Counted from the first letter of the stretch, positions 20,731 through 38,403 are shown. The stretch is 64,000 nucleotides of DNA from a virus (IMGVR_UViG_3300049460_000128:232595-296594), one strand, 5' to 3'. Notes: a model not told the origin generated them from the letters alone. Numbers and translations: made by a program.

Positions 20731-20991
20731 ATGATTACATTTGAACTACTTAATTGGCCTGAAACATCAGAACTGGATGAAGCTTTGGACTATCTCAATA
20801 TCACGGCATATTGGGTTTCAGGTTTTGAAGATTTTGGTGGTTATCAAATGAGTACTCGATATGTCTGGATCGAATATATTCGTTTCGCAAATGACAGTGA
20901 TGCGGCCCTGTTTGTTCTAACATATGGTGATAAATACCAGCCACAAAAAACCGATCGTGAGATCAAACATGGAATCACCCCATACTACTAA
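20731..20991 (+). CDS. DAxLF-motif small protein (member 1)
   Basis: 86 residues. Belongs to a lineage of about twenty small proteins in this window that share a C-terminal signature; here FANDSDAALFVLTYGD (about residues 60-75). The preceding YVWIEYIRF looks like a beta strand and the signature like a helix. No known domain recognised. No ribosome site; probably translated from a leaderless mRNA. The stop shares one base with the next start (TAATG), and the next gene is also a family member. Confidence 0.7.
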   Translation: MITFELLNWPETSELDEALDYLNITAYWVSGFEDFGGYQMSTRYVWIEYIRFANDSDAALFVLTYGDKYQPQKTDREIKHGITPYY

Positions 20992-21263
20992 TGACAACAT
21001 TCAAAGTTTATCACGAACTAGACGTGCGCCGCTGGCGAAAAGACGAAGTAGAACAACAAGTCGGTAATGCACTGGAATTCAATTCATATAAGGTCTATAT
21101 CGATGAATTGGCTGGCTGCTATATGGCTATCACTATGATTCAATTTAGTGATGAAGATGATGCCGTAATGTTCCGCTTAAAGTATGGCGATACCTGGAAT
21201 GCATCAGCCATGTTGGCCTCAGAGTTCCGTGAAGGTCACAAAAGGTCATACGTGGGAGGCTAA
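20991..21263 (+). CDS. DAxLF-motif small protein (member 2)
   Basis: 90 residues. Signature FSDEDDAVMFRLKYGD at about 60-75, followed by 15 basic/aromatic residues. The preceding strand is CYMAITMIQF. It is one of the members closest to the consensus. Translationally coupled to member 1 by a one-base overlap. Function unknown. Confidence 0.7.
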   Translation: MTTFKVYHELDVRRWRKDEVEQQVGNALEFNSYKVYIDELAGCYMAITMIQFSDEDDAVMFRLKYGDTWNASAMLASEFREGHKRSYVGG

Positions 21264-21317
21264 TGTTCATTTGTCCAAAAAGTTGATAAATACAATATCA
21301 ACCTCGAGGACACTTCC

Positions 21318-21527
21318 ATGAAGCTTTTCGCTATATCGGCCCTGTGTGCTTTGATTCTCATAAGTATCATCGTACTGTCTGGCTGCGCTCAATCAATCAT
21401 CCCAACCCCAACTCCATTCACCACCGGCGAAGAAGTCCAACCAGTTAAGGGTTGCTTGATGCTGCGTGAAGAAGTTGAAAAGTACAATGCCAAGCATCCT
21501 CAATCACCCAAGAAGGCGGATTGCTAA
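21318..21527 (+). CDS. Small lipoprotein
   Basis: 69 residues. Signal MKLFAISALCALILISIIVLSGC with lipobox VLSGC, so the mature protein is about 46 residues anchored by Cys23, Pro/Thr-rich at first (SIIPTPTPFTTGEEVQPVKG), ending KKADC. GAGGACAC ribosome site. Its stop overlaps the ATG of the transglutaminase-like peptidase gene, so the two are co-translated and may act together in the envelope (inference). Confidence 0.7.
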   Translation: MKLFAISALCALILISIIVLSGCAQSIIPTPTPFTTGEEVQPVKGCLMLREEVEKYNAKHPQSPKKADC

Positions 21528-21913
21528 TGGACATTATTCACGACACCTTGGCTGAGATTCATAAACGAGTCTACGGCCATTTCACTTACCAGACAGATCT
21601 GGAACAATACGGCGTGCTGGAAAAGTGGGTTATGCCCACTGATACATTCCAGGATTTCAAGGGCGACTGTGAAGATTTTGCCCTTGCTTGCCGTAAACTC
21701 TGCACCGCATCCACCAACCCATTGCTGCCAACCCGTTTGGTGGTTTGTACTATTGATGGCGAAGGGCATTGCGTTCTGGAATGCCAGGGCTGGATCATGT
21801 GCTGCAATCAGAAGACTCTCATGAGCCGCGATCAGTTGGCAAAAGAAGGTTACGAATGGCTGTATATCAGTGGCTTCCATCCCAACGATGCTTGGCACAA
21901 AATTACAGGTTGA
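21527..21913 (+). CDS. Transglutaminase-like cysteine peptidase (BTLCP type)
   Basis: 128 residues. Residues 44-57 read FKGDCEDFALACRK, the catalytic-Cys signature of bacterial transglutaminase-like cysteine peptidases (C48 in GDCEDF), with the probable His at H81 in GEGHCVLEC. A Trp at 34 and the LVVCT strand fit the family. BTLCP proteins act as periplasmic or cytoplasmic proteases in bacteria (LapG is one) and short forms are common in phages. I start at ATG 21527 (TAATG with the lipoprotein gene) and not at the in-frame TTG two codons earlier. No signal peptide. Substrate unknown. Confidence 0.75.
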   Translation: MDIIHDTLAEIHKRVYGHFTYQTDLEQYGVLEKWVMPTDTFQDFKGDCEDFALACRKLCTASTNPLLPTRLVVCTIDGEGHCVLECQGWIMCCNQKTLMSRDQLAKEGYEWLYISGFHPNDAWHKITG

Positions 21914-21938
21914 TTTTTGTTCATTTGTCAACTATAAT
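21910..21938 (+). promoter_or_regulatory. Sigma70-type promoter
   Basis: TTGATT (21910-21915), 17 nt containing TTCATTTG, perfect TATAAT (21933-21938). Drives the gene at 21966. Confidence 0.75.
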
Positions 21939-21965
21939 TCACATATTAGGTCAACAGGAGTGCAT

Positions 21966-22088
21966 ATGAACAACGAACAAATTGTTTATCCGAAATACGG
22001 TAATGCCATTGACAACATGCTGTGCGTCTATGGTGGTGCAACCCTGGTGGCCATCTGCATGACGATCTATACGTTAATTCATGTATAA
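21966..22088 (+). CDS. Tiny membrane protein
   Basis: 40 residues (MNNEQIVYPKYGNAIDNMLC...). One membrane segment spans about residues 18-38 (MLCVYGGATLVAICMTIYTLI). CAGGAG ribosome site 6 nt upstream and a strong promoter. Overlaps the next gene by 8 nt. Function unknown. Confidence 0.6.
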   Translation: MNNEQIVYPKYGNAIDNMLCVYGGATLVAICMTIYTLIHV

Positions 22089-22302
22089 CATTTGGCAACG
22101 CGAATACGAGTTTGCCATTCAGGTAAAACTCCCAACTGAATCACGCACAACAAGTCATACGGATTGGTTGCGTGAAAATGTTGGTCATGAAAATCTTGAT
22201 TGGGCCTATGGCTTCGTCACAGCCACACTGGATGTTATCGTCTATCAATTCTACTTCCGCGACGAAGGCGACTTAGCTCGTTTCAAGCTGGCAATGTTGT
22301 AA
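22081..22302 (+). CDS. DAxLF-motif small protein (member 3)
   Basis: 73 residues. Divergent signature FRDEGDLARFKLAML at the extreme C-terminus, preceded by the strand LDVIVYQFYF. The conserved Ala is shifted one position. The start lies inside the upstream membrane-protein gene. Confidence 0.6.
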   Translation: MYNIWQREYEFAIQVKLPTESRTTSHTDWLRENVGHENLDWAYGFVTATLDVIVYQFYFRDEGDLARFKLAML

Positions 22303-22394
22303 TCAAAATAATATTGATCCAGATACGTAATACGTGCCTAATATTACGGTGGTGTGGCTACATCCCGCAGTCATACCTTTCCATTAGAGGACGT

Positions 22395-22589
22395 ATGACT
22401 AAAAATATCAAACTCGTTGTGATAGCTGTTCTGGCTATCCTCTTTATCTGGGCAGGCTTCTCAATCAAGGAAGCTTGGACTCATGTATCCACACAAGCGG
22501 AACAAAGCACCATGCTGATGTGGACTGTGGGTTGGCTGTTGTCGCCAGCTGCCACCGCTGCCTTGTTGAAAATCCTTACAGACGAATAA
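22395..22589 (+). CDS. Small membrane protein
   Basis: 64 residues. One clear membrane segment (about 6-24, LVVIAVLAILFIWAGFSI) and a second hydrophobic stretch near 42-58 (MWTVGWLLSPAATAALL). GAGGACGT ribosome site. No family recognised. Confidence 0.6.
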   Translation: MTKNIKLVVIAVLAILFIWAGFSIKEAWTHVSTQAEQSTMLMWTVGWLLSPAATAALLKILTDE

Positions 22590-22631
22590 TCGTGCTACAA
22601 TACGGTTTTGAGCAATTGCGAAAGGATGAGT

Positions 22632-23009
22632 ATGACCTGGAATGCAGAGCAATACCTGAAAGGTCAGCACATACGGCAATTGCTTCAACTCCGCAATGCT
22701 TGCCATAAGTTCAATGGCTACTACGATATCTGCGACCATAGCGGTTGTGTGGTGACTATCGATCAAGTATTGGCGGAACTCAACACGCGGCCACACTTGG
22801 CACGTGGTAAAGAAGCTAAACTGTTGCGGCGGCTCATGGCAGAAAATCGCATGACTGACGAGCAAGTGCGGGCAATTCCAAAATTCGCGACCATGTTGGC
22901 ACAAGCGCAACCACGTCGTGTTGTATCGGCCGAAACATACAATCAGTACAAAATGGCTGCTCCTGAATGCTGGGTGACCAAAAAGATGATTGTATTGCCT
23001 AAGCCATGA
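22632..23009 (+). CDS. Unknown protein, 125 aa
   Basis: Starts MTWNAEQYLKGQH; AAAGGA sits upstream of this ATG, which decides it over the earlier in-frame TTG. Basic and mostly helical. DICDHSGC resembles half of a metal site (Cys-x2-His-x2-Cys) but no second pair is obvious. Ends in the ATGA overlap with the next gene, a DAxLF family member. Confidence 0.55.
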   Translation: MTWNAEQYLKGQHIRQLLQLRNACHKFNGYYDICDHSGCVVTIDQVLAELNTRPHLARGKEAKLLRRLMAENRMTDEQVRAIPKFATMLAQAQPRRVVSAETYNQYKMAAPECWVTKKMIVLPKP

Positions 23010-23293
23010 GCCGCATGGTTTATTTCGCAGATGGTGCCCCGATGGAACCAGCCTGGCGTCATTTACCGTTCTTTGACATAGCCGTTCATTCGATCAATGA
23101 TAAGTTGAATATTGATGAATACAAGGAAATGATCGACTTCCTTGGCACCACGTCTAGTAGGACGTTGAGATTCCAGATACCTGGTGATATTTGGAATATT
23201 GATGTGATTCGTTATTTCTTTGATGATGACGAAAGCAAGGCTGTATTCCGGTTAAAGTATTACCAGCTTGAATACGTGACTCTTCCACCATAA
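23006..23293 (+). CDS. DAxLF-motif small protein (member 4)
   Basis: 95 residues. Signature FDDDESKAVFRLKYYQ, with Ala displaced by one, preceded by WNIDVIRYF. The N-terminal half has FFDIAVHSINDKLNIDEYKEM. ATGA coupling to the upstream gene. Confidence 0.6.
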   Translation: MSRMVYFADGAPMEPAWRHLPFFDIAVHSINDKLNIDEYKEMIDFLGTTSSRTLRFQIPGDIWNIDVIRYFFDDDESKAVFRLKYYQLEYVTLPP

Positions 23294-23298
23294 ATAGC

Positions 23299-23327
23299 TT
23301 GACGATGTGGTAAAGTAATACTATACT
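23299..23327 (+). promoter_or_regulatory. Sigma70-type promoter for tRNA pair
   Basis: TTGACG (23299-23304), 17 nt, TATACT (23322-23327), ending 14 nt before the first tRNA. Confidence 0.7.
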
Positions 23328-23341
23328 GTCTTGCAACATTT

Positions 23342-23420
<79 letters not shown>

Positions 23421-23423
23421 TTT

Positions 23424-23498
23424 GGACCGTTAGCTCAGGGGCAGAGCGCAGAACTCATAATTCTAGGGTCACTGGTTCGAAACCAGTACGGTTCACCA
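23424..23498 (+). tRNA. tRNA with CAU anticodon, Met-like
   Basis: Acceptor GGACCGT/ACGGTTC, D stem GCTC/GAGC, anticodon loop CTCATAA (CAT), T arm ACTGG-TTCGAAA-CCAGT, encoded CCA. The top pair of the anticodon stem (C27-A43) is mismatched. GGGTCAC in the variable region resembles elongator tRNA-Met. It lacks the C1-A72 mismatch and GGG/CCC stem of initiators. Only 3 nt separate it from the first tRNA, so the two are one transcript. Confidence 0.82.
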
Positions 23499-23505
23499 TT
23501 CCATA

Positions 23506-23850
23506 TCATCCAACATTAAATTGTTGGACATTTCCCGTAATATTATCAACACTCCACGCACTTCCATCCAGATCTTCAACATCTGTGATCGTCACCCCAT
23601 TCGCATCGGCTGACTGTTTAATGGTCGTCAAGGCCTTGACCAAAACGTCATGGGTCAGTTGACCGTTTGAACTTACTGCCACACTAAAGACTGTTGTGCC
23701 ACTTGCTGTTTGCGTAGTGGTAAATTGTCCCGGTGCTGGCTTGGCATCATGCCCTTCTTTCCAACGAGCTTGTTTGAGTGCGGCCTTGACATTGTCGACG
23801 TATTGCTCAGGTGATAAATTTTCTGCTTCGATGAGTTCGTGATATCGCAT
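23506..23850 (-). CDS. Unknown late protein, isolated on minus strand
   Basis: 114 residues (MRYHELIEAENLSPEQYVDN...). TGGAG ribosome site and a late promoter 21 nt upstream. The N-terminal 35 residues are helical, the middle is a Thr/Ser-rich hairpin (FTTTQTASGTTVFSVAVSS) and the C-terminal part reads like a small beta domain. It is the only minus-strand gene between 19.4 and 54.3 kb, so possibly a virion protein expressed late (inference). A much longer frame continues upstream on this strand but is antisense to the ATPase gene and lacks support. Confidence 0.65.
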   Translation of the reverse strand: MRYHELIEAENLSPEQYVDNVKAALKQARWKEGHDAKPAPGQFTTTQTASGTTVFSVAVSSNGQLTHDVLVKALTTIKQSADANGVTITDVEDLDGSAWSVDNITGNVQQFNVG

Positions 23851-23870
23851 ATAGTCTCCAGATCTTTTGA

Positions 23871-23878
23871 TATTTATT
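23871..23878 (-). promoter_or_regulatory. T4-type late promoter AATAAATA
   Basis: One mismatch to TATAAATA, 21 nt before the start at 23850. Confidence 0.55.
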
Positions 23879-23902
23879 GTCAGTAAGTTGAAAAATGCCA
23901 GT

Positions 23903-23931
23903 TTGGCATAATCAACTTTACACGCTATAGT
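23903..23931 (+). promoter_or_regulatory. Sigma70-type promoter with palindrome at -35
   Basis: TTGGCA (23903-23908), 17 nt, TATAGT (23926-23931). ATGCCA-GTT-TGGCAT (23895-23909) overlaps the -35 box and could be an operator. Confidence 0.6.
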
Positions 23932-23973
23932 TTGATCTGGCAACAACGCCATGCAACTACAAACAACAACAAC

Positions 23974-25071: not shown

Positions 25072-25090
25072 CTAGCAAGGTTGTAGTAAG

Positions 25091-25143
25091 ACAACATTCA
25101 TCTTTAGTTCAACATTGACTTTAGATGAATGTTGTAGTAATAT
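25091..25143 (+). promoter_or_regulatory. Promoter with 13 bp inverted-repeat operator
   Basis: TTGACT (25115-25120), 17 nt, TAATAT (25138-25143). ACAACATTCATCT (25091-25103) and its perfect inverse (25123-25135) straddle the -35 box. TTGTAGTAA is also directly repeated at 25081 and 25132. Confidence 0.7.
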
Positions 25144-25173
25144 GGCTTCTAGTGTTATACCTAGGAGACAAAA

Positions 25174-25473: not shown

Positions 25474-25507
25474 TTGCTGTATAATGGTGCTTTATTGGAG
25501 TCTATAA

Positions 25508-25855
25508 ATGCCTCATAAACAAGTAGCTGCGGATTTGGCAAAAGCGAAATCACTCAATCTCGTGGACATCGATCGCTGGAGCGAAGGGATGGACCACCAT
25601 CCTATGTCTGAACGCAGCATCCGCTTCATAGCTGCTGAAGGCACCATGGACATTAGTGTGGGTGGCGACGGCGATGACGGTGAAACAATGATGTTCGTCC
25701 TGGATGCTTTCTGGGAAAGTAAGCCCGACATTAAAGTGTCACCAGACGTCATAAGCCGTCACCTGGCAGCAGCAAATCTGAAAGATGACCCCAACGTCAT
25801 TGCTGCCTTGAAAGCAATATTCCTTGAAGTTGACCTAACCTTGGTAGTCGAATGA
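25508..25855 (+). CDS. Unknown protein at head of the small-protein array
   Basis: 115 residues. TTGGAG ribosome site, TATAAT at 25480-25485. Acidic, with a GGDGDDGETMMFVLDAF segment. No family recognised. The stop overlaps the next start (ATGATCG), so it leads the coupled run of DAxLF-motif genes. Confidence 0.55.
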   Translation: MPHKQVAADLAKAKSLNLVDIDRWSEGMDHHPMSERSIRFIAAEGTMDISVGGDGDDGETMMFVLDAFWESKPDIKVSPDVISRHLAAANLKDDPNVIAALKAIFLEVDLTLVVE

Positions 25856-26097
25856 TCGTCGCATTCCGACTGCGATTCCCCAAGCCAACTGACACAGTTG
25901 ATATTCAGACGGATATGAACAAATGGTTGGAAGAGATTAGCGGCCTTAATACATTCGATCGGTGGCACTGGAACCCTCTCGGGATTACTCAACCACAATT
26001 CCGCGACTGGGAACTGCAAATTCCAGACGAAGAAATTTCGGTTACATTCAAAATTCGATGGTCTGAATACGTGACTGATAGTCGGAGCATAAAATGA
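25852..26097 (+). CDS. DAxLF-motif small protein (member 5, divergent)
   Basis: 81 residues. Signature degenerate but alignable: IPDEEISVTFKIRWSE, preceded by the strand FRDWELQ. The N-terminal strand MIVAFRLRFPKP and a WLEEISG helix fit the family outline. ATGA overlaps at both ends. Confidence 0.55.
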   Translation: MIVAFRLRFPKPTDTVDIQTDMNKWLEEISGLNTFDRWHWNPLGITQPQFRDWELQIPDEEISVTFKIRWSEYVTDSRSIK

Positions 26098-26306
26098 TCA
26101 CTCATCCCGCAGCACCAGACTGGTTTTCCTGCACACTTGATGCCAAACATCTACCCGCTATCCACGCTTGGATGACCGAACATCAAACCAATGAACTGTC
26201 GGTTCATCTTATGAAAACCGACAAGCAGGTATTCGTTTTCTTTAAAGACGAAGCATTGGCAGCAGTATTCAAACTGGCGTTCATTGATCACATCCTACCA
26301 GAATAG
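26094..26306 (+). CDS. DAxLF-motif small protein (member 6)
   Basis: 70 residues, among the shortest. Signature FKDEALAAVFKLAFID preceded by KQVFVF. Coupled to member 5 by ATGA. Confidence 0.62.
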   Translation: MITHPAAPDWFSCTLDAKHLPAIHAWMTEHQTNELSVHLMKTDKQVFVFFKDEALAAVFKLAFIDHILPE

Positions 26307-26592: not shown

Positions 26593-26880
26593 ATGACCAA
26601 AATCCCACTCCATATTGTACCATTTGATATTCATGCGAAAGCTATGGGTAAGAAGCATGACGACATGCTCAAATGGATTAGCTGGCCACACAACCTGGAC
26701 CCGCAATATGTGCTTGAGGTTAAACATTATGGATTCAACCTCTCCGATTTGTTTCCACAAATGAAGCAAATTGCCGACTGGATGACTTGCAACCAAATGA
26801 CTCATTGGCCCATGTATGGCCGGCATCGCATTTACCTAATGGAACAAGACGTAGTCCAATTGAAACTAACATGGTTATAA
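26593..26880 (+). CDS. DAxLF-motif small protein (member 7, divergent)
   Basis: 95 residues. Signature shortened: LMEQDVVQLKLTWL, at the very C-terminus after RHRIY. TAAAGT lies 6 nt before the ATG. The next member starts within its last ten bases. Confidence 0.55.
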   Translation: MTKIPLHIVPFDIHAKAMGKKHDDMLKWISWPHNLDPQYVLEVKHYGFNLSDLFPQMKQIADWMTCNQMTHWPMYGRHRIYLMEQDVVQLKLTWL

Positions 26881-27158
26881 CTTTCACTACACACACGGAG
26901 TTCACCCAAGAATTGAGGTGGTGGGATGCTGTGAAGAACAGGCACGATGCCTTTATACCCAAAGTAATAGCTGAATTCTCATTTGAAGACTACGAGACCT
27001 ATTTCAACTCTGGGAAACGTCCCACACAATGGCTTCACGATAATAATCGCCCATATTGCATGTATCGCACCCCAGATCCTAATTTTGTGGGCACCGGTAC
27101 GGTTCAAGTTTATCTAGCAAGTGAAGACGATGCAGTTATGTGGAGATTGACCCTGTGA
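26871..27158 (+). CDS. DAxLF-motif small protein (member 8)
   Basis: 95 residues. Signature LASEDDAVMWRLTL at the C-terminus, preceded by GTVQVY. Trp replaces Phe. Starts 10 nt before the stop of member 7. Confidence 0.62.
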   Translation: MVITFTTHTEFTQELRWWDAVKNRHDAFIPKVIAEFSFEDYETYFNSGKRPTQWLHDNNRPYCMYRTPDPNFVGTGTVQVYLASEDDAVMWRLTL

Positions 27159-27451
27159 TCCAGTATAAGACCATACGTGAACACAAACGTGGCTGGAATA
27201 TGACTACTCATTCATTCTGGGCAGGAAGCGTCACCCCACGTCACCATATGCGTTTTAAACCTCGCCTGATAGTCTTTATCGAACACAAGACGTTTAATGA
27301 CGAGCGGTCACTTCCAAGTCACCATGACGTATTCAGCACAATAGTGAGACTGGGTATTACCTTCGCTATCTACCATAACAGCGATCATAACATCACACTG
27401 TTGATGAATGACGAAGCTGAGATCGCAACACTGCGACTGGCATTGGCATGA
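27155..27451 (+). CDS. DAxLF-motif small protein (member 9, divergent)
   Basis: 98 residues. I choose the GTG at 27155 (GTGA overlap with the previous stop) over an in-frame GTG 15 nt earlier, because four-base overlaps are the rule in this array. Signature LMNDEAEIATLRLALA after HNITL. Basic N-terminal half. Confidence 0.52.
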   Translation: MIQYKTIREHKRGWNMTTHSFWAGSVTPRHHMRFKPRLIVFIEHKTFNDERSLPSHHDVFSTIVRLGITFAIYHNSDHNITLLMNDEAEIATLRLALA

Positions 27452-27717
27452 GTATAAAATTCTACACAGGCGATGAATTCAGAGCCCGGAAAGCATTCCA
27501 AACAATAATGATTGCTGGCGGGTATGGTGCGATAAACTATAACGAAATCAAGTTTATGATCGTCATAGCAGTAATCCGCAACATACCGCAAACAATGCAA
27601 GATTTCTTATCTGAACACAATATCGCATTCTCACATTTTCCCACTTACATGGGCTTCCACTTCATTGCCATCAATAATGAAGATGACTTTGCATTCACAA
27701 AATTAACATGGATATAG
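27448..27717 (+). CDS. DAxLF-motif small protein (member 10)
   Basis: 89 residues. Signature INNEDDFAFTKLTWI at the C-terminus, preceded by GFHFIA. ATGA overlap upstream. AT-rich with ATA and AGA codons. Confidence 0.58.
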   Translation: MSIKFYTGDEFRARKAFQTIMIAGGYGAINYNEIKFMIVIAVIRNIPQTMQDFLSEHNIAFSHFPTYMGFHFIAINNEDDFAFTKLTWI

Positions 27718-27989
27718 AATACTGGCCCGGCGCTGAATTTAAAACACAATTGCAACATAGATGGACTATCGCCACTTATCACCCAAATCAGGTTATACAC
27801 CCAACTGATTTCGTGATCGCATATCCATATGATCGCCTAACGGTCAGAACACCAAATGACCTTATGGAGTTCAAAGACCTGTTGGATGAACATCAGATCG
27901 AATACAACTTCCTATTCACCCCATCGAAAGTGGCATACTTCATAATCAACTCAGAAGACACTATGGCTATGATCAAACTCATATGCTGA
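27708..27989 (+). CDS. DAxLF-motif small protein (member 11)
   Basis: 93 residues. Signature INSEDTMAMIKLIC at the C-terminus, preceded by KVAYFI. FKDLLDEHQIEYNFLF before it parallels MQDFLSEHNIAFSHFP in member 10, so these two are close paralogues. Starts 10 nt inside member 10. Confidence 0.58.
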   Translation: MDIEYWPGAEFKTQLQHRWTIATYHPNQVIHPTDFVIAYPYDRLTVRTPNDLMEFKDLLDEHQIEYNFLFTPSKVAYFIINSEDTMAMIKLIC

Positions 27990-28276
27990 TTCAAATCCAT
28001 AAAAGCAACGATATATTGGAACGGCATAAAATAAATTGCTCCATGATGTATCAAATCATGCAAGAGTTTAATTACCCAATCTGCATGACATTCACTCTCT
28101 CCTACGACGCACCATTAGACGCTGCCCTAAACATGAGCGTAGTACGAACCAAAATCCATGAACTGGCAACAACACTGACAGATCAACCAACTCCTATCTT
28201 CACCATACTGCTACGGCAATCCGTGATCTTCCTCCCAGACGAAGAAACAGCAACCATCCTTAGACTCATGTGTTGA
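27983..28276 (+). CDS. DAxLF-motif small protein (member 12)
   Basis: 97 residues. Signature LPDEETATILRLMC at the C-terminus, preceded by LRQSVIF. Overlaps member 11 by 7 nt and ends the array. Both end in -C after the Leu, supporting recent duplication. Confidence 0.57.
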   Translation: MLIQIHKSNDILERHKINCSMMYQIMQEFNYPICMTFTLSYDAPLDAALNMSVVRTKIHELATTLTDQPTPIFTILLRQSVIFLPDEETATILRLMC

Positions 28277-29176: not shown

Positions 29177-29941
29177 ATGATTATTCAATTCTTCTCCGAC
29201 CTGCACACCGAAGACGGTGACCTCCCATATGAACCAGCCCCATGCGATGTCATCGTGATTACCGGTGACCTTGGCGTTGGGCGTGGCACTCTTGACTGGG
29301 TGGATCGCCACATGGCTGATGTCAAACAACCTATCCTAGTGGTCCCAGGCAATCATGATCCATACTATGGCCGGCTAGATGACCGGTTGGCTATGTTTGA
29401 GACCGAGTTCGCCCGGATGGGTGTAGACTTCCTGTACAACAAATCTGTCACGATTGGCGATACGTTGTTCCTGGGGACCACACTCTGGACGGATTTCAAC
29501 CTCCATGGGCAACAGTACAACAAGATGCTGATTGCTCACCAGCAGATGTTTGACTATCAGGTAATCGATGGCGACGGCCCAAATGACAAGATAACGGCCG
29601 ACGACATTTTGGCTGAACACAAGAAAGCAATCGAGTTCTTGGAGCGTGAGTTATCCGCTCGTACACCCGGTCAGAAAACTGCCGTATTGACGCACCATGC
29701 CCCTTCTGCTTTGAGTTTGGGGGATGATCACGATAATCGTTTTGCTCCCTACTACGCATCACACCTTGATGAGTTGATCTTGCGTCATCAACCAGAGTTG
29801 TGGATTCATGGCCATACGCATCGCAAGTTGCAGTATTTTATTGGCGAGGAAACCCTGGTAATGTGCAACGCCAGGGGTCGTAAAGGCCATCCAAAGTCGT
29901 GGAACAAAGAATTTGATATGCGTATGACGGTTAAAATATGA
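29177..29941 (+). CDS. Calcineurin-like metallophosphoesterase
   Basis: 254 residues. All metal-binding motifs are present: D8-L-H10, G30-D31, GNHD at 58-61, a THHAP motif near 170 and GHTHR near 213. This is the binuclear metallophosphoesterase fold, whose members cleave phosphomonoesters or diesters, including nucleotides and nucleic acids. Substrate cannot be told from sequence; it could act on a host signalling nucleotide (inference). No ribosome site, so likely leaderless. ATGA overlap with the next DAxLF gene. Confidence 0.85.
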   Translation: MIIQFFSDLHTEDGDLPYEPAPCDVIVITGDLGVGRGTLDWVDRHMADVKQPILVVPGNHDPYYGRLDDRLAMFETEFARMGVDFLYNKSVTIGDTLFLGTTLWTDFNLHGQQYNKMLIAHQQMFDYQVIDGDGPNDKITADDILAEHKKAIEFLERELSARTPGQKTAVLTHHAPSALSLGDDHDNRFAPYYASHLDELILRHQPELWIHGHTHRKLQYFIGEETLVMCNARGRKGHPKSWNKEFDMRMTVKI

Positions 29942-30201
29942 TCATCGGCACTTGGGCGGACCATCCGGTTCATCTTAAAGAGCTGGTTAATAATAGGTTG
30001 CCATCTATGGAATGGGGCCTTCCCAAGTGGGTGGTTTGTAGTTACAATCGCGCCCAAGACATTGAATTCTTGAACAAATGCACGGACTGGCAACAGTGGA
30101 TAGAAGACCAGAATATTTGCGCGTATATTTGTTTGGTATCGTGTGCTATAGTTTTCATGAATGACGAGGATGTGGCACTATTTCGTTTAACTTGGTTATA
30201 A
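29938..30201 (+). CDS. DAxLF-motif small protein (member 13)
   Basis: 87 residues. Signature FMNDEDVALFRLTWL at the C-terminus, preceded by LVSCAIV. Coupled by ATGA to the metallophosphoesterase, so the two may be a functional pair. Confidence 0.66.
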   Translation: MIIGTWADHPVHLKELVNNRLPSMEWGLPKWVVCSYNRAQDIEFLNKCTDWQQWIEDQNICAYICLVSCAIVFMNDEDVALFRLTWL

Positions 30202-30972: not shown

Positions 30973-31217
30973 TCTATCATCGTTCGCAACGAGCACCTGG
31001 CAAGCAAACCATCATCTGGGACATAGCAGAAGAACAGTATGGTGCTGAATTGATAGCCGTGGTTGATCGGGCACGTGGTACGACGGAAGAGCAAAAAGCC
31101 TGGATGAAATCTGTTGGCATAAAGAAAGCTGATTACCACCAGATGAATGTGCTTATCCACTTTTTTGCTCGTGAGGAAGATGCGATGCTGTTCTACCTTA
31201 CTTGGGGTATCAAGTGA
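30969..31217 (+). CDS. DAxLF-motif small protein (member 14)
   Basis: 82 residues. Signature FAREEDAMLFYLTWGIK, preceded by MNVLIHF. The N-terminal IWDIAEEQYGAELIAVV-(5)-GTTEEQKAWMKS matches member 15, so the two are a tandem duplication. ATGA at its start, GTGA at its end. Confidence 0.68.
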   Translation: MIYHRSQRAPGKQTIIWDIAEEQYGAELIAVVDRARGTTEEQKAWMKSVGIKKADYHQMNVLIHFFAREEDAMLFYLTWGIK

Positions 31218-31477
31218 GTGACATACGGTCATCAGTCCTTCGTCCTTTTAGTGGGCCCGCCAGGGCGTCAAGTTGGTATGAAATTGAACAACGATATGGC
31301 AAAGAATTTGTCGTTGCATGGTGGCCCACTAAAGGAACAACTGAAGAACGTCTGTGTTGGTTGGACGAGCTGATGCCAGGTAAGTATGGTGTGTTTAGTA
31401 CCGTTATGTCGTCGTATACCTTCTTTGTCTCAGAGGAAGATGCAGTGCTGTTCGCTCTAACGTGGTGTGGTGGTTGA
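31214..31477 (+). CDS. DAxLF-motif small protein (member 15)
   Basis: 87 residues, GTG start in a GTGA overlap. Signature FVSEEDAVLFALTWCGG. WYEIEQRYGKEFVVAWW-(4)-GTTEERLCWLDEL parallels member 14 along its whole length. Confidence 0.68.
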   Translation: MSDIRSSVLRPFSGPARASSWYEIEQRYGKEFVVAWWPTKGTTEERLCWLDELMPGKYGVFSTVMSSYTFFVSEEDAVLFALTWCGG

Positions 31478-31568: not shown

Positions 31569-31637
31569 GTGAAACATGATGCAGCGGAAAACAAACAAAC
31601 GCTGCAACGACAAACAACCACACTGAAAGGAAACATC

Positions 31638-32033
31638 ATGAAAGTAGAAATCCTGGGCCTGGCACATGCAACGTTCAACGGCACCCGCGGCGAAGCTGGT
31701 GGTGCTCCTTCCAAAGACAGCATCTTCGGTCTGGCGCTGGTACAAGGCAACGTCGTGACCTTCGGTGGTCGCCGTGGCGGCACACTGCGCTTCAAGACCT
31801 ACAAGAAGCCAGAACTGGAAGCGCAGAAAGAACGATTCGCGGCCAAGCTGACCGGCAACCCATTCGGCAAAAACATCGATGCCCGTTACAGCGTCGTGAC
31901 CGACGACGTAAAAGCTGAACTGCTGGGTGCGGACTTCGACACCGAAGTAGTTGGTCGTGGCTTCTACAAAGCGATGTCGGCCAAGAAGCTGAACACCTAC
32001 AGCCGTAAGCCAAAAGCAACTGCTGCGGCCTAA
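31638..32033 (+). CDS. WGR-like small protein A
   Basis: 131 residues. One of three paralogues (with 32532-32927 and 39381-39746). Shared outline: KVEILGLAH-(4)-GTRGEAGGAPSKDSIFG, VVTFGGRRGGTLRFKTYKK, then NPFGKNIDARYSVVTDD and a basic tail. The middle F-GGRRGG-(3)-FKT stretch resembles the WGR domain core (WGR-x-G), known from PARPs and bacterial nucleic-acid-binding proteins; in paralogue C it reads FWGRRNG. GC-rich optimised codons, a long leader and AAAGGAAACATC ribosome site imply very high early expression. A DNA-binding or host-takeover role is inference. Confidence 0.62.
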   Translation: MKVEILGLAHATFNGTRGEAGGAPSKDSIFGLALVQGNVVTFGGRRGGTLRFKTYKKPELEAQKERFAAKLTGNPFGKNIDARYSVVTDDVKAELLGADFDTEVVGRGFYKAMSAKKLNTYSRKPKATAAA

Positions 32034-32088: not shown

Positions 32089-32373
32089 ATGCCAGCAACT
32101 GAATATTTGGCCTGGATGGAACAGTCCAGCAGGGATAATCCCCTATACAAGCATGCTATCGAGCAGGGCTGGAGACCAGGCCCCAAGAATGTTGAATGGT
32201 CGGCCAGCGTGGTTTGCGAGCCACCTCAGTTTGTTGACAACAAGGGAATGTTCACGGTCTATAGAGACTGGATCAAGCGTAATGACTTCACGGCCCAGTA
32301 TGAACATTCTACTTGTACCTGGTATTTTGAACGTGAAGATGAGGCTTTACTCTTTACAATCACTTTCGGGTAG
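32089..32373 (+). CDS. DAxLF-motif small protein (member 16)
   Basis: 94 residues. Signature FEREDEALLFTITFG at the C-terminus, preceded by STCTWY. TTGGAGTAACT ribosome site right after a terminator, so expressed by read-through. Confidence 0.64.
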   Translation: MPATEYLAWMEQSSRDNPLYKHAIEQGWRPGPKNVEWSASVVCEPPQFVDNKGMFTVYRDWIKRNDFTAQYEHSTCTWYFEREDEALLFTITFG

Positions 32374-32531: not shown

Positions 32532-32927
32532 ATGGCAGCAAAAGTTGAACTGCAAGCACTGGGCCACTGCACTTTCAAAGGCACCCGCGGCGAATCCGGC
32601 GGCGCACCATCCAAAAACAGCCTGTGGGGCGTGGCCTTCATCGGCGGTACGCTGGTAACCTTCGGTGGCCGTGTCGGCGGCAACATGCGTTTCAAGACGC
32701 ACAAGAAAGCTGACCTGCCAGCCGTGATGGACACCTTCACCAACGGCAAGCTGACCGGCTTCCCATTCGGCAAGAAAATCGACGCCCGCTACAGCGACGT
32801 GACCGACAAGGCCGCCGAGTGGATCCCTGACCTGGAAAAAACCCTGGGCGGCCAATACTACGCCGCGGTGAAAAACCTGAAGGTCAACACTCGCGCCACC
32901 GCCAAGAAGGCCAAAGAAGCCGCGTAA
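32532..32927 (+). CDS. WGR-like small protein B
   Basis: 131 residues. Very close to paralogue A: GTRGESGGAPSKNSLWG, LVTFGGRVGGNMRFKTHKK, FPFGKKIDARYSDVTDK, ending in an Ala/Lys-rich basic tail (RATAKKAKEAA) that could contact nucleic acid or membrane. Ribosome site AAGGAGTACGAC. Own promoter and terminator; strongly optimised codons. Confidence 0.62.
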   Translation: MAAKVELQALGHCTFKGTRGESGGAPSKNSLWGVAFIGGTLVTFGGRVGGNMRFKTHKKADLPAVMDTFTNGKLTGFPFGKKIDARYSDVTDKAAEWIPDLEKTLGGQYYAAVKNLKVNTRATAKKAKEAA

Positions 32928-32949
32928 GTGAACGCCGGCGCCAACGAAG

Positions 32950-32974: not shown

Positions 32975-33010
32975 GTGACGATTTTCGGTAAAATGGTTGA
33001 CCTTTTAACG

Positions 33011-33039
33011 TTGACTATTTGCCATAATGAATGTATTCT
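33011..33039 (+). promoter_or_regulatory. Sigma70-type promoter of pspA cassette
   Basis: TTGACT (33011-33016), 17 nt, TATTCT (33034-33039). Confidence 0.68.
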
Positions 33040-33078
33040 GCGATAACTGGCTTAGCCATACTTAACTAGGAGATTCAA

Positions 33079-33756: not shown

Positions 33757-33798
33757 TCGCAACGGGCGGTTCATCGCCGCCCCATAATAAGGAAGAAC

Positions 33799-35187
33799 AT
33801 GAAAAATACCGCCCGTTTTGTTGCCGTAATCTTCACCATGGTGCTCAGCTTCAGTGCCATGGCGAAAGGTCAGTTCGATGAAGCCCAACGCGCCATGATG
33901 GACAGTCAATGGGGCCGAGCAGAACAACTGCTGAAAGCCTACCAGGAAAAAGACTACAACAACGGCAAAGGTCACTACCTGCTCGCCCAGGTATACGAAC
34001 AAACGCGCCGTTATGCGGAAGCACAAGATCAACTGGACATCGCCAAGAAAGTTGCACCAGACGGCCGCTGGGCAAAAGCCGACCAAGCTGACGCAATGGC
34101 AAATCGCCTGAGCGTTAAACTGGCAGCAAACAACCCGCAACCGCGTACTCAGCCGCGTGAACGTACTCGCGTAGCCGACGAGCCACGTGTGGCCTATACG
34201 CCGCCAGCACGTCAAACGCCAGTCGCGAACACTACCCCAGCACCAACCACTAATGTGGCGCCGCAACAAAGCAGTGGCGGTCATGGCTTCATGATCTTCC
34301 TGGTCTTCCTGTTGGTCGCTGCCGGTGGCGGTCTTGGTATCTATTACTACCTGGGACGTCGTACTGAAAAAGAAGCTGAAGAGCGTCTCGATGCTGGCCG
34401 TCGTGCCCTGCAAGCAACTGCGGTTGACATGCAAGCCCGTGTGACCGCTATCCGCGATGCACTGAAATTCCAGAACAAAGCTGGTAGTGAACTTGGCTTG
34501 TCGATCGACGGCATTGCATCCAGCCTGAACACCAACGCAAATGCTCTGCGTGACCGTGCGATCGACTCCAACACGCTGAGCCGGGCACGTTCGAATCTGG
34601 ACACTCTGGAAGCTCAACTGTCGCGTGCTGAAGGTCGTCTGGCTCGCAAAGACTTCGACGCCGCGAAAGCTGCTCCAGCACCAACTCCTGCTCCTGAACC
34701 CGTCCGTGCTGCTCCTGCACCAACCCCTGCGCCGTATCAACCAACGTCCACGACTCCACCGTCGCCGCGCTACGCTGCACCGACTCCTGCACCGGCTCCT
34801 GTCCACCAGCCGCAGGTTGTTCACCATCATCACGAAACGATCGTGCATGACAACAGTTCGTCAGACCTGCTGACCGCTGTGGTGATCGCTGACGCAATGT
34901 CGAATAGCCGTCATGAAGATGAGCGTCGTCGTGAACGTGAGCGCGAATACGAACGTGATCGTCAACGCGAGCGTGACCGCGAAGAAGAACGTCGTGCAGA
35001 ACAACGTCGCGAAGATCAACGCCAACGTGATCGTGAAGAGCGCGAAGAACAAAATCGCCGTGATCGCCAAGATGAAGAAGATCGTCGCAGCAGCCGTTCT
35101 GCTCCCGCGATGGACTTCGGCGGCGACGACGACAGCGGCAGCTCGTCGAGCAGCCCAAGCATGGATATGGGCGGCGACGACGACTGA
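33799..35187 (+). CDS. Secreted/membrane scaffold with TPR-like, TM and charged tail
   Basis: 462 residues. Signal peptide (about 1-22, cleavage after SAMA); two TPR-like helices (RAEQLLKAYQEKDYNNGKGHY, AEAQDQLDIAKKV) at 30-100; Pro/Thr linker; one membrane segment at about 162-182 (GFMIFLVFLLVAAGGGLGIY); a helical region 190-290; a Pro/Ala spacer with a VHHHHETIVHD motif; a 70-residue Arg/Glu repeat; and an Asp/Ser/Gly-rich tail (two MDxGGDDD units). The N-terminal part is thus periplasmic and the charged tail cytoplasmic, where it could meet PspA. AAGGAAGAAC ribosome site; one-base overlap with the next gene. Confidence 0.7.
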   Translation: MKNTARFVAVIFTMVLSFSAMAKGQFDEAQRAMMDSQWGRAEQLLKAYQEKDYNNGKGHYLLAQVYEQTRRYAEAQDQLDIAKKVAPDGRWAKADQADAMANRLSVKLAANNPQPRTQPRERTRVADEPRVAYTPPARQTPVANTTPAPTTNVAPQQSSGGHGFMIFLVFLLVAAGGGLGIYYYLGRRTEKEAEERLDAGRRALQATAVDMQARVTAIRDALKFQNKAGSELGLSIDGIASSLNTNANALRDRAIDSNTLSRARSNLDTLEAQLSRAEGRLARKDFDAAKAAPAPTPAPEPVRAAPAPTPAPYQPTSTTPPSPRYAAPTPAPAPVHQPQVVHHHHETIVHDNSSSDLLTAVVIADAMSNSRHEDERRREREREYERDRQRERDREEERRAEQRREDQRQRDREEREEQNRRDRQDEEDRRSSRSAPAMDFGGDDDSGSSSSSPSMDMGGDDD

Positions 35188-35660
35188 TGGAAGAACTCAA
35201 CTATAAGCGTTCGTCTTGGCACTACTGGCTTGCCACTAAACTCGGCCCCATGCAACGCTGGGACGATGCAACAGATTTCTGCACCTACGTTCGTGCAGTG
35301 GTGGTCGGTATGCTGATGTTTTGCCTGCTGTCTTGCTTGGGCCTTGGTCTGCTGTATTGTTTCGGCGATTGGCTGGGTTGGATCTCGGCAATGATCAAAG
35401 CTGGCCATATTATCTGGCTGTCCGGTAAAGATCCATCTGGTGCAATGATCTTCAATGTTGTATTGGGTGTTTGCGCCGGTATCGGCGGCTTTGGTGGTGG
35501 TATGTATTGGCGTGAACAAGCCAACCACAGAAAAGCAGAGCGTATCTGGCAAGCAAAACAGGAACTTGGTGCCAACTATGTTCCTCCGGAGCCAAGCTTC
35601 ATTGGTCATGCTTGGAAACGGTTCAAAGACAAGACCTGCTACAAAGTCAAATTCAATTGA
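35187..35660 (+). CDS. Membrane protein of pspA cassette
   Basis: 157 residues. Two membrane segments, about 35-60 (AVVVGMLMFCLLSCLGLGLLYCF) and 88-108 (MIFNVVLGVCAGIGGFGGGMYW), with a basic cytoplasmic C-terminus. ATG overlaps the previous stop by one base (TGATG). Third gene of the unit, followed by a terminator. Possibly the membrane anchor for the PspA-like protein (inference). Confidence 0.65.
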   Translation: MEELNYKRSSWHYWLATKLGPMQRWDDATDFCTYVRAVVVGMLMFCLLSCLGLGLLYCFGDWLGWISAMIKAGHIIWLSGKDPSGAMIFNVVLGVCAGIGGFGGGMYWREQANHRKAERIWQAKQELGANYVPPEPSFIGHAWKRFKDKTCYKVKFN

Positions 35661-35689
35661 AAAAAGCCCGGGACGTCCCGGGCTTTTTT
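35661..35689 (+). terminator. Rho-independent terminator
   Basis: AAAAGCCCGGGA/TCCCGGGCTTTTTT hairpin ending the pspA cassette. Confidence 0.88.
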
Positions 35690-35690
35690 G

Positions 35691-35719
35691 TTGATGAAAA
35701 TTTCATATGGCTGTATAAT
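35691..35719 (+). promoter_or_regulatory. Sigma70-type promoter
   Basis: TTGATG (35691-35696), 17 nt with TTCATATG, TATAAT (35714-35719). Confidence 0.7.
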
Positions 35720-35740
35720 GTGAACCAAAGGAGGTTCATC

Positions 35741-36070
35741 ATGTTCAATCTCGATATTTTCAATCTACCAAAGCAGTACACGGACTTGGAAAAGCGCCTA
35801 GCCGCTGCTCGTAATCTGGGCAATTGTCAGGGCTACATCACCGGCCACAACGGTGCTGAAGCATGCTGGGCCCTAGCCATCGAATACAAGATCGGCATCA
35901 AACACTTCCCAGACAACACTGGCATCGAAGTAAGTTACTGGAAAGATGGTTGGATTGTTCGCGAACATTTGTTCACCGACTTCGAACATCCAGAACTGGC
36001 CATTCGTTATGCTGTCTGCGAACTGGTCTGCCACAAACTCGAAAATAAACAGGACGACATGTATGGTTAA
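35741..36070 (+). CDS. Unknown protein, 109 aa
   Basis: Very strong AAAGGAGGTTCATC ribosome site decides the start. Helical N-terminus (KQYTDLEKRLAAARNLGN), then a beta region with Trp residues (EVSYWKDGWIVREH). No family recognised. Overlaps the next gene by 8 nt. Confidence 0.58.
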   Translation: MFNLDIFNLPKQYTDLEKRLAAARNLGNCQGYITGHNGAEACWALAIEYKIGIKHFPDNTGIEVSYWKDGWIVREHLFTDFEHPELAIRYAVCELVCHKLENKQDDMYG

Positions 36071-36413
36071 GAAAATCGGCAAGTACGACATTCCATTCGA
36101 CGCTGATGGTAACCAGATGCACTATGCAGAACATGGTTGGGACGGCACCTACAACCAAAGTGGTAGCTGCAACCATGTAGCCAAGTATACCATGCAGCCA
36201 AACGATCCATTCCCGGATACGCTGACCTTCAAGGGTTATCAGCGTGGTCGGTCGGCAGCATATTTCCACTTCGAGCGCGAAAATGGCAAAGGCGTGTGCG
36301 TCTTCCTGAAAGAGATGGAAGCCATGATCCCGCTTATGGTCCATGGCAAAATTACTGGCACCTTCCAGTTCATTAAACGCGGCCAAAATTACGGGTGCGC
36401 CATCGCACCATAA
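36063..36413 (+). CDS. Unknown protein, 116 aa
   Basis: MVKKIGKYDIPFDADGNQMH...; beta-rich, with FHFERENGKGVCVFLKEMEAMIPLM near the centre and ITGTFQFIKRGQNYGCAIAP at the end. Resembles a small beta-barrel domain. Coupled to the upstream gene by an 8 nt overlap. No family recognised. Confidence 0.55.
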   Translation: MVKKIGKYDIPFDADGNQMHYAEHGWDGTYNQSGSCNHVAKYTMQPNDPFPDTLTFKGYQRGRSAAYFHFERENGKGVCVFLKEMEAMIPLMVHGKITGTFQFIKRGQNYGCAIAP

Positions 36414-36414
36414 G

Positions 36415-36443
36415 TTGCAAGTTCACTGGGGTGGCACTATACT
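36415..36443 (+). promoter_or_regulatory. Sigma70-type promoter, leaderless type
   Basis: TTGCAA (36415-36420), 17 nt, TATACT (36438-36443); ATG at 36450 only 6 nt later. Confidence 0.6.
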
Positions 36444-36449
36444 GGCACT

Positions 36450-36656
36450 ATGATAAACGTACTGGTAACCACCACCTATGCTCGCTCAGAAGGAGCAGCA
36501 ATATCAACCATGTTAATTCCAGCCGCCAACTTCTACGAAGCTGAGCAAATAGCTGATAAAATAAACACGGAGGCCACAAATCGTTGGCCAAGATACGGCG
36601 GATTCGGCCAGTATGCAATAATCGTCGGTGGGCATCCACCAGAGGAAACCAAATGA
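36450..36656 (+). CDS. Unknown protein, 68 aa
   Basis: [20 protein letters not shown]...; alpha/beta, with helix [16 protein letters not shown] and a final strand QYAIIVGG. Leaderless promoter. ATGA overlap with smpB, so the two are co-translated. No family recognised. Confidence 0.55.
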
Positions 36657-37102
36657 GCATTATCGATAACAAAAAAGCATTCCACGACTACACGGTCGAA
36701 GACCGATATGAAGCTGGGCTCGTCCTCGAGGGCTGGGAAGTGACAGCCATCCGTGCCGGTCGTTCGAACATCAAAGAAGCTCACGTGGTGGCTCGTGATG
36801 GCGAACTGTTCCTGTTCAATTCCCACATCAGCCCATTGCCTAACACTAGCGGCTTTACCACCTTGCAACCAACTCGTTCGCGTAAGCTGCTGCTGAACAA
36901 GAAAGAAATCAACAAGCTACTGGGTAAGGTGTCCACTGCTGGCTATACGATCGTACCCTTGAACTTCCACTTCAAGAAGGGTCGCATCAAGTGTGAGATC
37001 GGTCTGGCAAAAGGCAAGAAGCAACACGACAAACGTGCGACGCAGAAAGACCGCGATGGTAAACGTGAAGTTGCCCAAGCGATGAAACAAAACGCAAGGT
37101 AG
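36653..37102 (+). CDS. smpB: SsrA-binding protein SmpB
   Basis: 149 residues (E. coli SmpB 160). Start at [13 protein letters not shown] in an ATGA overlap. The OB-fold hallmarks are all there: [74 protein letters not shown] and DKR, followed by a basic tail. SmpB carries tmRNA into stalled ribosomes for trans-translation; the C-terminal tail enters the mRNA channel. No tmRNA gene is found in the window, so it may use host tmRNA or one elsewhere in the phage. Confidence 0.93.
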
Positions 37103-37103
37103 C

Positions 37104-37286
37104 ATGATCGACGCAACGTTCGCCTGGTATCCAGAAATGCCAATTGCATGTGAGGGTGATGATGTCAGTGCAAGAGTCATCACCCTTCGTATACGTGTCT
37201 GCCCGATACGTATTGTAAGCGCGGAGAGGACATTGGAGCGTCGCTATGGTGGGTATGTGCAGCTTTGGAGCACGACTACAATATGA
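37104..37286 (+). CDS. Small protein, unknown
   Basis: 60 residues. Begins one base after the smpB stop and ends in an ATGA overlap with the next family member, so it is probably translated. MIDATFAWYPEM resembles the aromatic N-terminal strand of the DAxLF proteins but the signature is missing; it may be a degenerate or truncated relative. Confidence 0.45.
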   Translation: MIDATFAWYPEMPIACEGDDVSARVITLRIRVCPIRIVSAERTLERRYGGYVQLWSTTTI

Positions 37287-37615
37287 TCACCCAGGTGTTT
37301 CAAACCGTCGATGCTTTGATCGAAGAGATGGAGACTGTTCGTGGAAGCGATAAGATGTTTTCCGGAATATCAAGTGGGCAAATGGTTCACTATATGGAAA
37401 GCATTTTGGAAGGTGTTCATTCAGCTTCTTTCCCAGTAATATGTTTCTATATGGCTTGGCGTACTACTTGGTTTGGGGCTGAAGAAATAATCCCTGAATT
37501 GCCCATAGATTCGGTGGGAAGAATCGAAGCAATAAGCACTGAAGCTGGTGTTGTGGTTTGCTTCGAAGATGAAGGCGATGCTGCATTATTCAGATTGGGC
37601 TTAACTGACGATTAG
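37283..37615 (+). CDS. DAxLF-motif small protein (member 17)
   Basis: 110 residues. Signature FEDEGDAALFRLGLTDD, preceded by TEAGVVVC. Start in an ATGA overlap. Confidence 0.64.
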   Translation: MITQVFQTVDALIEEMETVRGSDKMFSGISSGQMVHYMESILEGVHSASFPVICFYMAWRTTWFGAEEIIPELPIDSVGRIEAISTEAGVVVCFEDEGDAALFRLGLTDD

Positions 37616-37640
37616 TAAATACCTGATTACCGGGTATAAG

Positions 37641-38006
37641 ATGGCTACAATAAATCTCCTCCTAAATGTGATGGCCATGCGTTCGCAATATGTTGCGTTG
37701 GAGGAGTGCCTAGACGACAAAATGAGCTGGACCACCTACGATAAACTTCTGGAAAATATTCAAGCCATCGATCAGATGATGGCTGGTTATCCGGATGATT
37801 TTCAGGCAAACATCAAACAATTCTATCACTTCGGCGATGCTTTCATGGCATTTGTTGCCACCCTTCCCTGGACACCAGTCATCGTTCAACAATTTGATAT
37901 GACCGACCCCATTGTTGAACTTGATAATCCCAACATAGTCACATTCAACACATATCGATTCTTCCGCTACGAAGACGACGCGGTGGTTTGGCGCCTATCG
38001 ATCTGA
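37641..38006 (+). CDS. DAxLF-motif small protein (member 18)
   Basis: 121 residues, the longest of the family. Signature FRYEDDAVVWRLSI at the C-terminus, preceded by VTFNTYRF. Trp replaces Phe as in member 8. Confidence 0.63.
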   Translation: MATINLLLNVMAMRSQYVALEECLDDKMSWTTYDKLLENIQAIDQMMAGYPDDFQANIKQFYHFGDAFMAFVATLPWTPVIVQQFDMTDPIVELDNPNIVTFNTYRFFRYEDDAVVWRLSI

Positions 38007-38061
38007 TGTTGTATTTTCACTAGTGTGCCAGATTCTTGTTTAAATTTTAATCAAGTCGCTG

Positions 38062-38067
38062 TATACT
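38062..38067 (+). promoter_or_regulatory. -10 box, leaderless type
   Basis: TATACT ending 6 nt before the ATG at 38074; only a weak -35 candidate (TTTAAA, 38039-38044) at 17 nt. Confidence 0.45.
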
Positions 38068-38073
38068 GGCTAT

Positions 38074-38403
38074 ATGAAACTATTCACCATTGAACCCCTG
38101 GATGTATGGCTGATGAAGCTGAAAGGCAAGGAACGCCCATTTGATGAGTATCCACGTTCAGTTCGTCGCACTCTGACTCGTATCAAACAGATGGCTTTCC
38201 AGCCTGCCATTGTGATTCGCTATAACAGCAAGTTGCAAACAAGCACTACGGTTGATATTGATTGGAACCAAGAACAAGCGGTTGCTTGGTTGTCTGCCAA
38301 TGCGTCTGGTATGTTTTTCCATGAAGTCAAGGGCAATCGTATCTATCTGGCTGACGACGATGACGCCGTCTTATTCAAACTAATTTTCTCGGAGCAAGTA
38401 TGA
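38074..38403 (+). CDS. DAxLF-motif small protein (member 19)
   Basis: 109 residues. Signature LADDDDAVLFKLIFSE, preceded by KGNRIY. No ribosome site. ATGA overlap with the next gene. Confidence 0.65.
   Translation: MKLFTIEPLDVWLMKLKGKERPFDEYPRSVRRTLTRIKQMAFQPAIVIRYNSKLQTSTTVDIDWNQEQAVAWLSANASGMFFHEVKGNRIYLADDDDAVLFKLIFSEQV

What the first reader, a model, noticed from the sequence alone, without database searches (positions are those of the whole stretch)
20731..38403. A twenty-member family of unrelated-looking small proteins sharing only a C-terminal DAxLF signature
Twenty genes (starts 20731, 20991, 22081, 23006, 25852, 26094, 26593, 26871, 27155, 27448, 27708, 27983, 29938, 30969, 31214, 32089, 37283, 37641, 38074 and, on the minus strand, 55963) encode 70-121 residue proteins ending in a beta-strand-like segment followed by [hydrophobic]-x-[DNSE]-E-x-D-A-x-[LMV]-[FW]-x-L-x-[WYF]. 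Clear examples are FSDEDDAVMFRLKYGD, FAREEDAMLFYLTWGIK, LADDDDAVLFKLIFSE and FINDSDAILFKLRFM. Several are divergent, so membership at 25852, 26593 and 27155 is tentative. N-terminal halves hardly align, which suggests a conserved docking element attached to fast-evolving bodies. Strand-plus-helix ending in F-x-x-x-x-DA resembles the end of an RRM/ferredoxin-like fold. An arsenal of host-targeting effectors or anti-defence proteins is a reasonable but unproven reading.
Basis: partly seen in the sequence, partly recalled or inferred. Interest (0 to 1): 0.92.

Follow-up and report, generated by a model that had tools for sequence, protein, structure and literature searches.

The report
Giant phages' hugely multiplied small-protein family
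A giant bacterial virus carries about 60 copies of one undescribed kind of small protein, very different in sequence but sharing one C-terminal signature, and other giant viruses carry up to about 90, so that one unknown protein family can fill about a fifth of a viral gene set.

Summary
The window is the last 64 kb of a 296.6-kb phage record. An HMM of the last ~16 residues finds 55-65 members across that genome (main array at 198-208 kb, outside the window) and none in reversed or shuffled controls. The same signature (F-x5-A-x-[LM]-F-K-L-T-W, 0-3 residues before the stop in 83%) occurs in other large IMG/VR phages (up to ~87 per genome) and in cultured Sinorhizobium phage Phosso, but not in T4, phiKZ, phage G, 121Q or several other jumbo phages; a pattern scan of 84,980 prokaryote genomes found no true member. 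No Pfam, PHROG, NCBIfam or PADLOC family covers it. The bodies are not unrelated: they carry a faint shared profile, a W-[LC] helix upstream and one likely beta-alpha-beta-beta-alpha domain. They evolve about twice as fast as neighbouring genes under purifying selection; the motif is conserved as protein, not DNA. A two-domain homologue (window 10099-10836, next to phage clpA) marks 11 of 12 array phages and none of seven others. Best reading: one fast-diverging effector family whose C-terminal helix is a constant interface. Function and partner are unproven; a Clp-adaptor role is possible but weak.

The parts
20731..20991 (+). family member, 86 aa (motif plus 21-aa tail)
   Evidence: motif HMM 7e-15
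20991..21263 (+). family member, 90 aa
   Evidence: motif HMM 4e-15
22081..22302 (+). family member, 73 aa, with WLRENVG helix
   Evidence: domain HMM 9e-8, not in training set
23006..23293 (+). marginal family member, 95 aa
   Evidence: domain HMM 0.01
25852..26097 (+). family member with degenerate motif, 81 aa
   Evidence: domain HMM 3e-5, refined 9e-8
26094..26306 (+). family member, 70 aa
   Evidence: motif HMM 1e-12
26593..26880 (+). marginal family member, 95 aa
   Evidence: E 0.01 with the clpP-linked profile only
26871..27158 (+). family member, 95 aa
   Evidence: motif HMM 1e-10
27155..27451 (+). tentative, motif-like end only
   Evidence: no HMM support
27448..27717 (+). marginal family member, 89 aa
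   Evidence: domain HMM 0.003
27708..27989 (+). marginal family member, 93 aa
   Evidence: domain HMM 0.03
27983..28276 (+). tentative, motif-like end only
   Evidence: no HMM support
29938..30201 (+). family member, 87 aa, the protein modelled by AlphaFold2
   Evidence: motif HMM 6e-15; model pLDDT 73, >90 over the C-terminal 20 aa
30969..31217 (+). family member, 82 aa
   Evidence: motif HMM 1e-15
31214..31477 (+). family member, 87 aa
   Evidence: motif HMM 1e-14
32089..32373 (+). family member, 94 aa
   Evidence: motif HMM 5e-14
37283..37615 (+). family member, 110 aa
   Evidence: motif HMM 9e-13
37641..38006 (+). family member, 121 aa
   Evidence: motif HMM 3e-10
38074..38403 (+). family member, 109 aa
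   Evidence: motif HMM 3e-14
55670..55963 (-). family member, 97 aa
   Evidence: motif HMM 2e-10
10099..10836 (-). two-domain homologue (core), 245 aa, directly downstream of clpA
   Evidence: A4/A5 profiles, single-copy orthologues in 11 of 12 array phages
10916..13222 (-). phage ClpA (context), with Clp_N domain and LGF loop
   Evidence: TIGR02639 1.5e-261; PF02861, PF07724, PF10431

Best explanation
One superfamily of small (60-120 aa) single-domain phage proteins, probably beta-alpha-beta-beta-alpha, has been multiplied by old tandem duplications into operon-like arrays of tens of genes in a set of large phages. The N-terminal two thirds diverged fast, so each paralogue probably meets a different target. 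The C-terminal strand and helix (F-x5-A-x-[LM]-F-K-L-T-W-stop) stayed constant because it is both part of the fold and a shared interface, to a common partner or to each other. Most likely these are infection-phase effectors that bind many different host proteins. Shown: one family, the motif's C-terminal position, protein-level conservation, the body's faster evolution under constraint, and the phage-restricted distribution in the searches made. Inferred: the fold, the interface, host targeting and effector function.
For: 55 hits in one genome with zero control hits. Up to 77 motif matches per record elsewhere. 233 of 280 members end 0-3 residues after the motif, 167 of them exactly 1. Bodies show a shared weak profile and W-[hydrophobic] enrichment, although only 1 pair among 54 paralogues is visible to BLAST. 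Between related phages G007 and G008, body dN is 0.30, motif 0.17 and other small genes 0.15 at similar dS; 43 of 53 family genes are retained. Codons within the motif are as mixed as in the bodies, so selection acts on the protein and there is no sign of recent gene conversion. Conserved hydrophobics surround most of the C-terminal helix (A9, F12, W16 on one face; L11, L14 and position 10 on the other), more than packing on one sheet needs. Model of window:29938-30198.
Against: No function, partner or expression time is known. The second structure job was of low confidence (55) and drew the motif as a strand. No significant fold match was found. Strict conservation could come from folding alone. 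Some large relatives and the core protein have extra residues after the motif.
Confidence: 0.45

Rival explanations
1. The motif is only the hydrophobic core and C-terminal cap of a small fold. The arrays are ordinary fast-evolving small early genes and no common partner exists.
For: The conserved residues alternate as expected for strand plus helix; the bodies share a weak profile; the model packs the C-terminal helix as part of the domain.
Against: Near-invariant identities (F, A, F, L at 89-98%) beside bodies with almost no pairwise similarity; hydrophobic residues on both faces of the helix; C-terminus fixed to within 0-3 residues in 83%.
Confidence: 0.3
2. The members are adaptors, or tagged clients, of the phage's own ClpAP protease: the constant helix docks on ClpA or ClpP and the body brings different host proteins for degradation.
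For: Every array phage tested other than G012 carries both a ClpA and a ClpP-family gene. The two-domain homologue lies directly downstream of clpA in G000, G001 and G006. A member lies directly upstream of clpP in eight phages. Two of the few members of PA5oct lie within 1.2 kb of its clpP. Phage ClpS adaptors are already reported (PMC7824862).
Against: Array-less jumbo phages also carry ClpA and ClpP. Adjacency in single genomes is not significant as a rule (chance 4-45%). In Phosso the same gene pair is kept around an acetyltransferase instead of clpP. No sequence match to ClpS.
Confidence: 0.12
3. The members are structural or assembly proteins, forming a heteromeric lattice or decorating the virion through the shared helix.
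For: Conserved interface with variable bodies; a two-domain pseudo-dimer homologue; some members sit beside tail-fibre-like genes.
Against: Copy number and identity vary strongly between phages. PA5oct members carry no mass-spectrometry flag in the record while several neighbours do, ClpP among them.
Confidence: 0.1

Closest known systems
[quoted passage not shown] phage G ~35-copy zinc-ribbon expansion (PMC7824862)
   Same: Jumbo-phage genome growth by tandem duplication of one small gene to tens of copies.
   Different: Those are described as very similar genes. Here the paralogues are almost unrecognisable outside the C-terminus, and the motif profile finds nothing in G or 121Q.
Phage-encoded ClpS adaptors (PMC7824862)
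   Same: Small phage proteins proposed to redirect ClpAP.
   Different: No sequence match; tens of divergent copies; the Clp link is by genome context only.
RRM/ferredoxin-like (beta-alpha-beta-beta-alpha-beta) and KH/ring-building beta-alpha-beta-beta-alpha folds
   Same: A similar order of secondary-structure elements and the strand-then-D/E-capped-helix ending.
   Different: No significant PDB hit (best E 0.37); the last ferredoxin strand is not predicted.

Membership tests
Any curated family (Pfam, PHROGs, NCBIfam, PADLOC) | A consistent profile match across members | tested here: not met
   121 members scanned: every hit is a single member at E >= 5e-4 in unrelated families
RRM / ferredoxin-like fold | beta-alpha-beta-beta-alpha-beta topology with structural similarity to solved members | tested here: not met
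   Model has beta-alpha-beta-beta-alpha; no Foldseek PDB match at E<=0.001
One homologous family (this proposal) | Shared C-terminal profile beyond chance | tested here: met
   55 hits against 0 control hits; 13-77 matches in nine other large records and 46 in Phosso
One homologous family (this proposal) | Homology outside the motif | tested here: met
   Held-out body HMM AUC 0.75 against shuffled and reversed bodies, 0.86 against other ORFs; weak for single sequences
One homologous family (this proposal) | The same fold in different members | tested here: inconclusive
   One reasonable model, one low-confidence model
ClpS / Clp adaptors | ClpS sequence family | tested here: not met
   No ClpS match among 121 members
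ClpS / Clp adaptors | Binding to the ClpA N-domain and delivery of substrates | not testable with these tools
   needs binding and degradation assays
Phage G / 121Q tandem arrays | Members detectable with the motif profile | tested here: not met
   0 matches in KM507819 and JN638751

The most novel reading that the evidence does not exclude
A modular phage arsenal: tens of fast-evolving bodies, each aimed at a different host protein, all plugged by one constant C-terminal helix into a single phage hub (the two-domain core protein or the phage's own ClpAP), so that one machine is redirected to many host targets.
Probability: 0.17. Interest if true: 0.95.

Novelty: new variant of a known kind. 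Interest (0 to 1): 0.72.

Why it matters
A protein family absent from the libraries searched makes up about a fifth of the gene calls in some giant phages (65 of 331 in G007 and 53 of 229 in G008), and it is present in a cultured phage (Phosso, S. meliloti). A single conserved handle shared by tens of unknown genes would allow their function to be tested together. If the handle is a docking site, it exposes a common partner through which giant phages act on many host targets.

Tried and rejected
DNA- or RNA-level element at the gene ends (recombination site, coupled start): rejected, because synonymous sites in the motif are as divergent as elsewhere (ps 0.665 against 0.668) and codons are fully mixed. 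ssrA-like degron: not supported, because the phage tmRNA tag ends in AVAA, unlike the motif. Cellular origin: a scan of 84,980 genomes with one DNA pattern gave a single hit, which is not a member. tblastn with single members in named phages found nothing at first; it lacks power for so short a motif, and profile searches were needed. The strong Clp hypothesis was lowered after adjacency statistics, array-less controls and the Phosso context. PDB sequence hits to RanBP2 (E 0.02) were taken as chance. Literature searches found no description of this family.

Full report
What was checked. The window is bases 232,595-296,594 of a 296,594-base virus record. Its replication genes place it with giant T4-like phages: the clamp-loader protein is 46% identical to that of Pseudomonas phage PA5oct and 43-44% to those of Sinorhizobium phage Phosso and Agrobacterium phage Atu_ph07.

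The family is real. A seed of twelve C-termini, iterated to a 16-position HMM, recovers 55 ORFs in the whole record at E<=5e-4. The same HMM gives nothing at E<=1 in 4,562 reversed or shuffled ORFs. Combined motif, domain and core HMMs give 65 members. They form a main array at 198.1-208.4 kb on the minus strand (35 genes, 16 neighbouring pairs overlapping by 4 nt), a second group at 216.5-219.9 kb, the window group, and a few singletons.

It is widespread among large phages but patchy. Degenerate DNA patterns in 2.9 million viral contigs pull out further arrays. Profile searches of whole records give 59 matches here and 38, 59, 13, 77, 55, 27, 56, 39 and 43 in nine other records, 46 in cultured Sinorhizobium phage Phosso and 2 in PA5oct. 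There are none in Atu_ph07, XacN1, SCTP-2, GAP32, MD-2021a and Vibrio phage 2.275, nor in T4, phiKZ, G, 121Q, RaK2, PAU, S-SSM7, CcrColossus, phiM9 and phiN3. Six further records have 5-17. One pattern scan of 84,980 prokaryote genomes gave a single chance match. In Phosso the members inspected are annotated as hypothetical proteins. None of 121 members is convincingly covered by Pfam, PHROGs, NCBIfam or PADLOC.

Anatomy. The consensus end is [FIVW]-x-F-[EDRK]-[DNST]-x-x-[DE]-A-[AVM]-[LM]-F-K-L-[TR]-[WYHF]. F3, A9, F12 and L14 are 89%, 89%, 96% and 98% conserved among 253 distinct motifs. In 167 of 280 members exactly one residue follows, and in 233 zero to three. Bodies are almost unrecognisable pairwise: among 54 paralogues in this phage, only one adjacent pair is found by BLAST. 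They are nevertheless related. HMMs trained on half of the bodies rank held-out bodies above their shuffles and reversals (AUC ~0.75) and above other ORFs (0.86), and 89% carry a W followed by a hydrophobic residue about 24 residues upstream, against 66% when shuffled. In many phages this is a clear W-[LC]-x-E-N-x-G helix.

Structure. AlphaFold2 on window:29938-30198 with 121 relatives gives beta-alpha-beta-beta-alpha, mean pLDDT 73, above 90 over the last 20 residues. A second job on an independent subfamily was poor (55) and drew the motif as a strand, so the fold is likely, not proven. Foldseek finds no significant PDB match. Against viral models, the best hits are small uncharacterised proteins of uncultured Caudovirales (probability 0.96, E 0.08). 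If the C-terminus is a helix, conserved hydrophobic residues cover two faces (angles). This is the main reason to suspect an interface besides the fold core; it is inference.

Evolution. Between the related records G007 and G008, 43 of 53 G008 family genes have reciprocal orthologues. Body dN is 0.30, motif dN 0.17, other small genes 0.15, with dS 1.66 and 1.38. The bodies therefore evolve twice as fast as neighbours yet remain under purifying selection. Synonymous sites in the motif are as divergent as in the bodies, and codon choice within the motif is as mixed as elsewhere. The conserved unit is therefore the peptide, not a DNA or RNA element, and the paralogues are old.

The two-domain homologue. 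Ten records, including this one (window 10099-10836, minus strand), encode one 205-245 aa protein made of two copies of the domain, and an eleventh (G003) a diverged version. It is missing from PA5oct, Atu_ph07, XacN1, SCTP-2, MD-2021a, GAP32 and Vibrio 2.275 and was not detected as a full protein in Phosso. Searches starting from this protein returned only records already known to have arrays. It is a candidate founder or hub. The phages share ancestry, so the association is not independent evidence of function. Short contigs with members but without the core (G010, G011, G013-G015) are fragments and were not counted.

The Clp question. The core lies directly downstream of phage clpA in G000, G001 and G006. 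A conserved member lies directly upstream of phage clpP in G000, G001, G002, G004, G005, G006, G007 and G009, and two PA5oct members lie within 1.2 kb of clpP. This suggested Clp adaptors. Three controls weaken it: ClpA and ClpP also occur in array-less jumbo phages; random placement gives such adjacency in 4-45% of trials per genome; and in Phosso the same pair of members flanks an acetyltransferase. It stays as a rival at about 0.12.

Verdict. Real, large, unnamed in the libraries searched, and phage-restricted in these searches. Effector function is the most likely reading but rests on inference.

Noticed in passing
window 36584-37102 (+); L001 6223-6647 (-): Phage-encoded SmpB (PF01668, 5e-55) and a tmRNA with predicted tag ANDSSFRQAVAA: a viral trans-translation system, together with phage ClpA and ClpP.
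   Followed up: partly
window 31569-32033, 32532-32927, 39330-39746 (+): Three paralogues of another uncharacterised 131-154 aa protein sharing a G-T/A-R-G..GGA block and a GGR/WGR-like block; no Pfam match.
   Followed up: no
L066 26148-26366 (Phosso) and the ClpP2 neighbourhoods of G002, G004, G005, G007, G008: Phage-encoded translation initiation factor IF-1 (annotated in Phosso; look-alikes by eye in the others) lies close to a second ClpP-like gene, with family members beside it.
   Followed up: no
window 10916-14705 (-): ClpA and a DnaJ-like protein form a proteostasis gene block; related phages add a peptide deformylase-like gene.
   Followed up: partly
window 46096-47001 and 52583-54316 (+): GalU-like nucleotidyltransferase and a thiamine-diphosphate (acetolactate synthase-like) enzyme, unusual metabolic genes for a phage; identified by eye only.
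   Followed up: no
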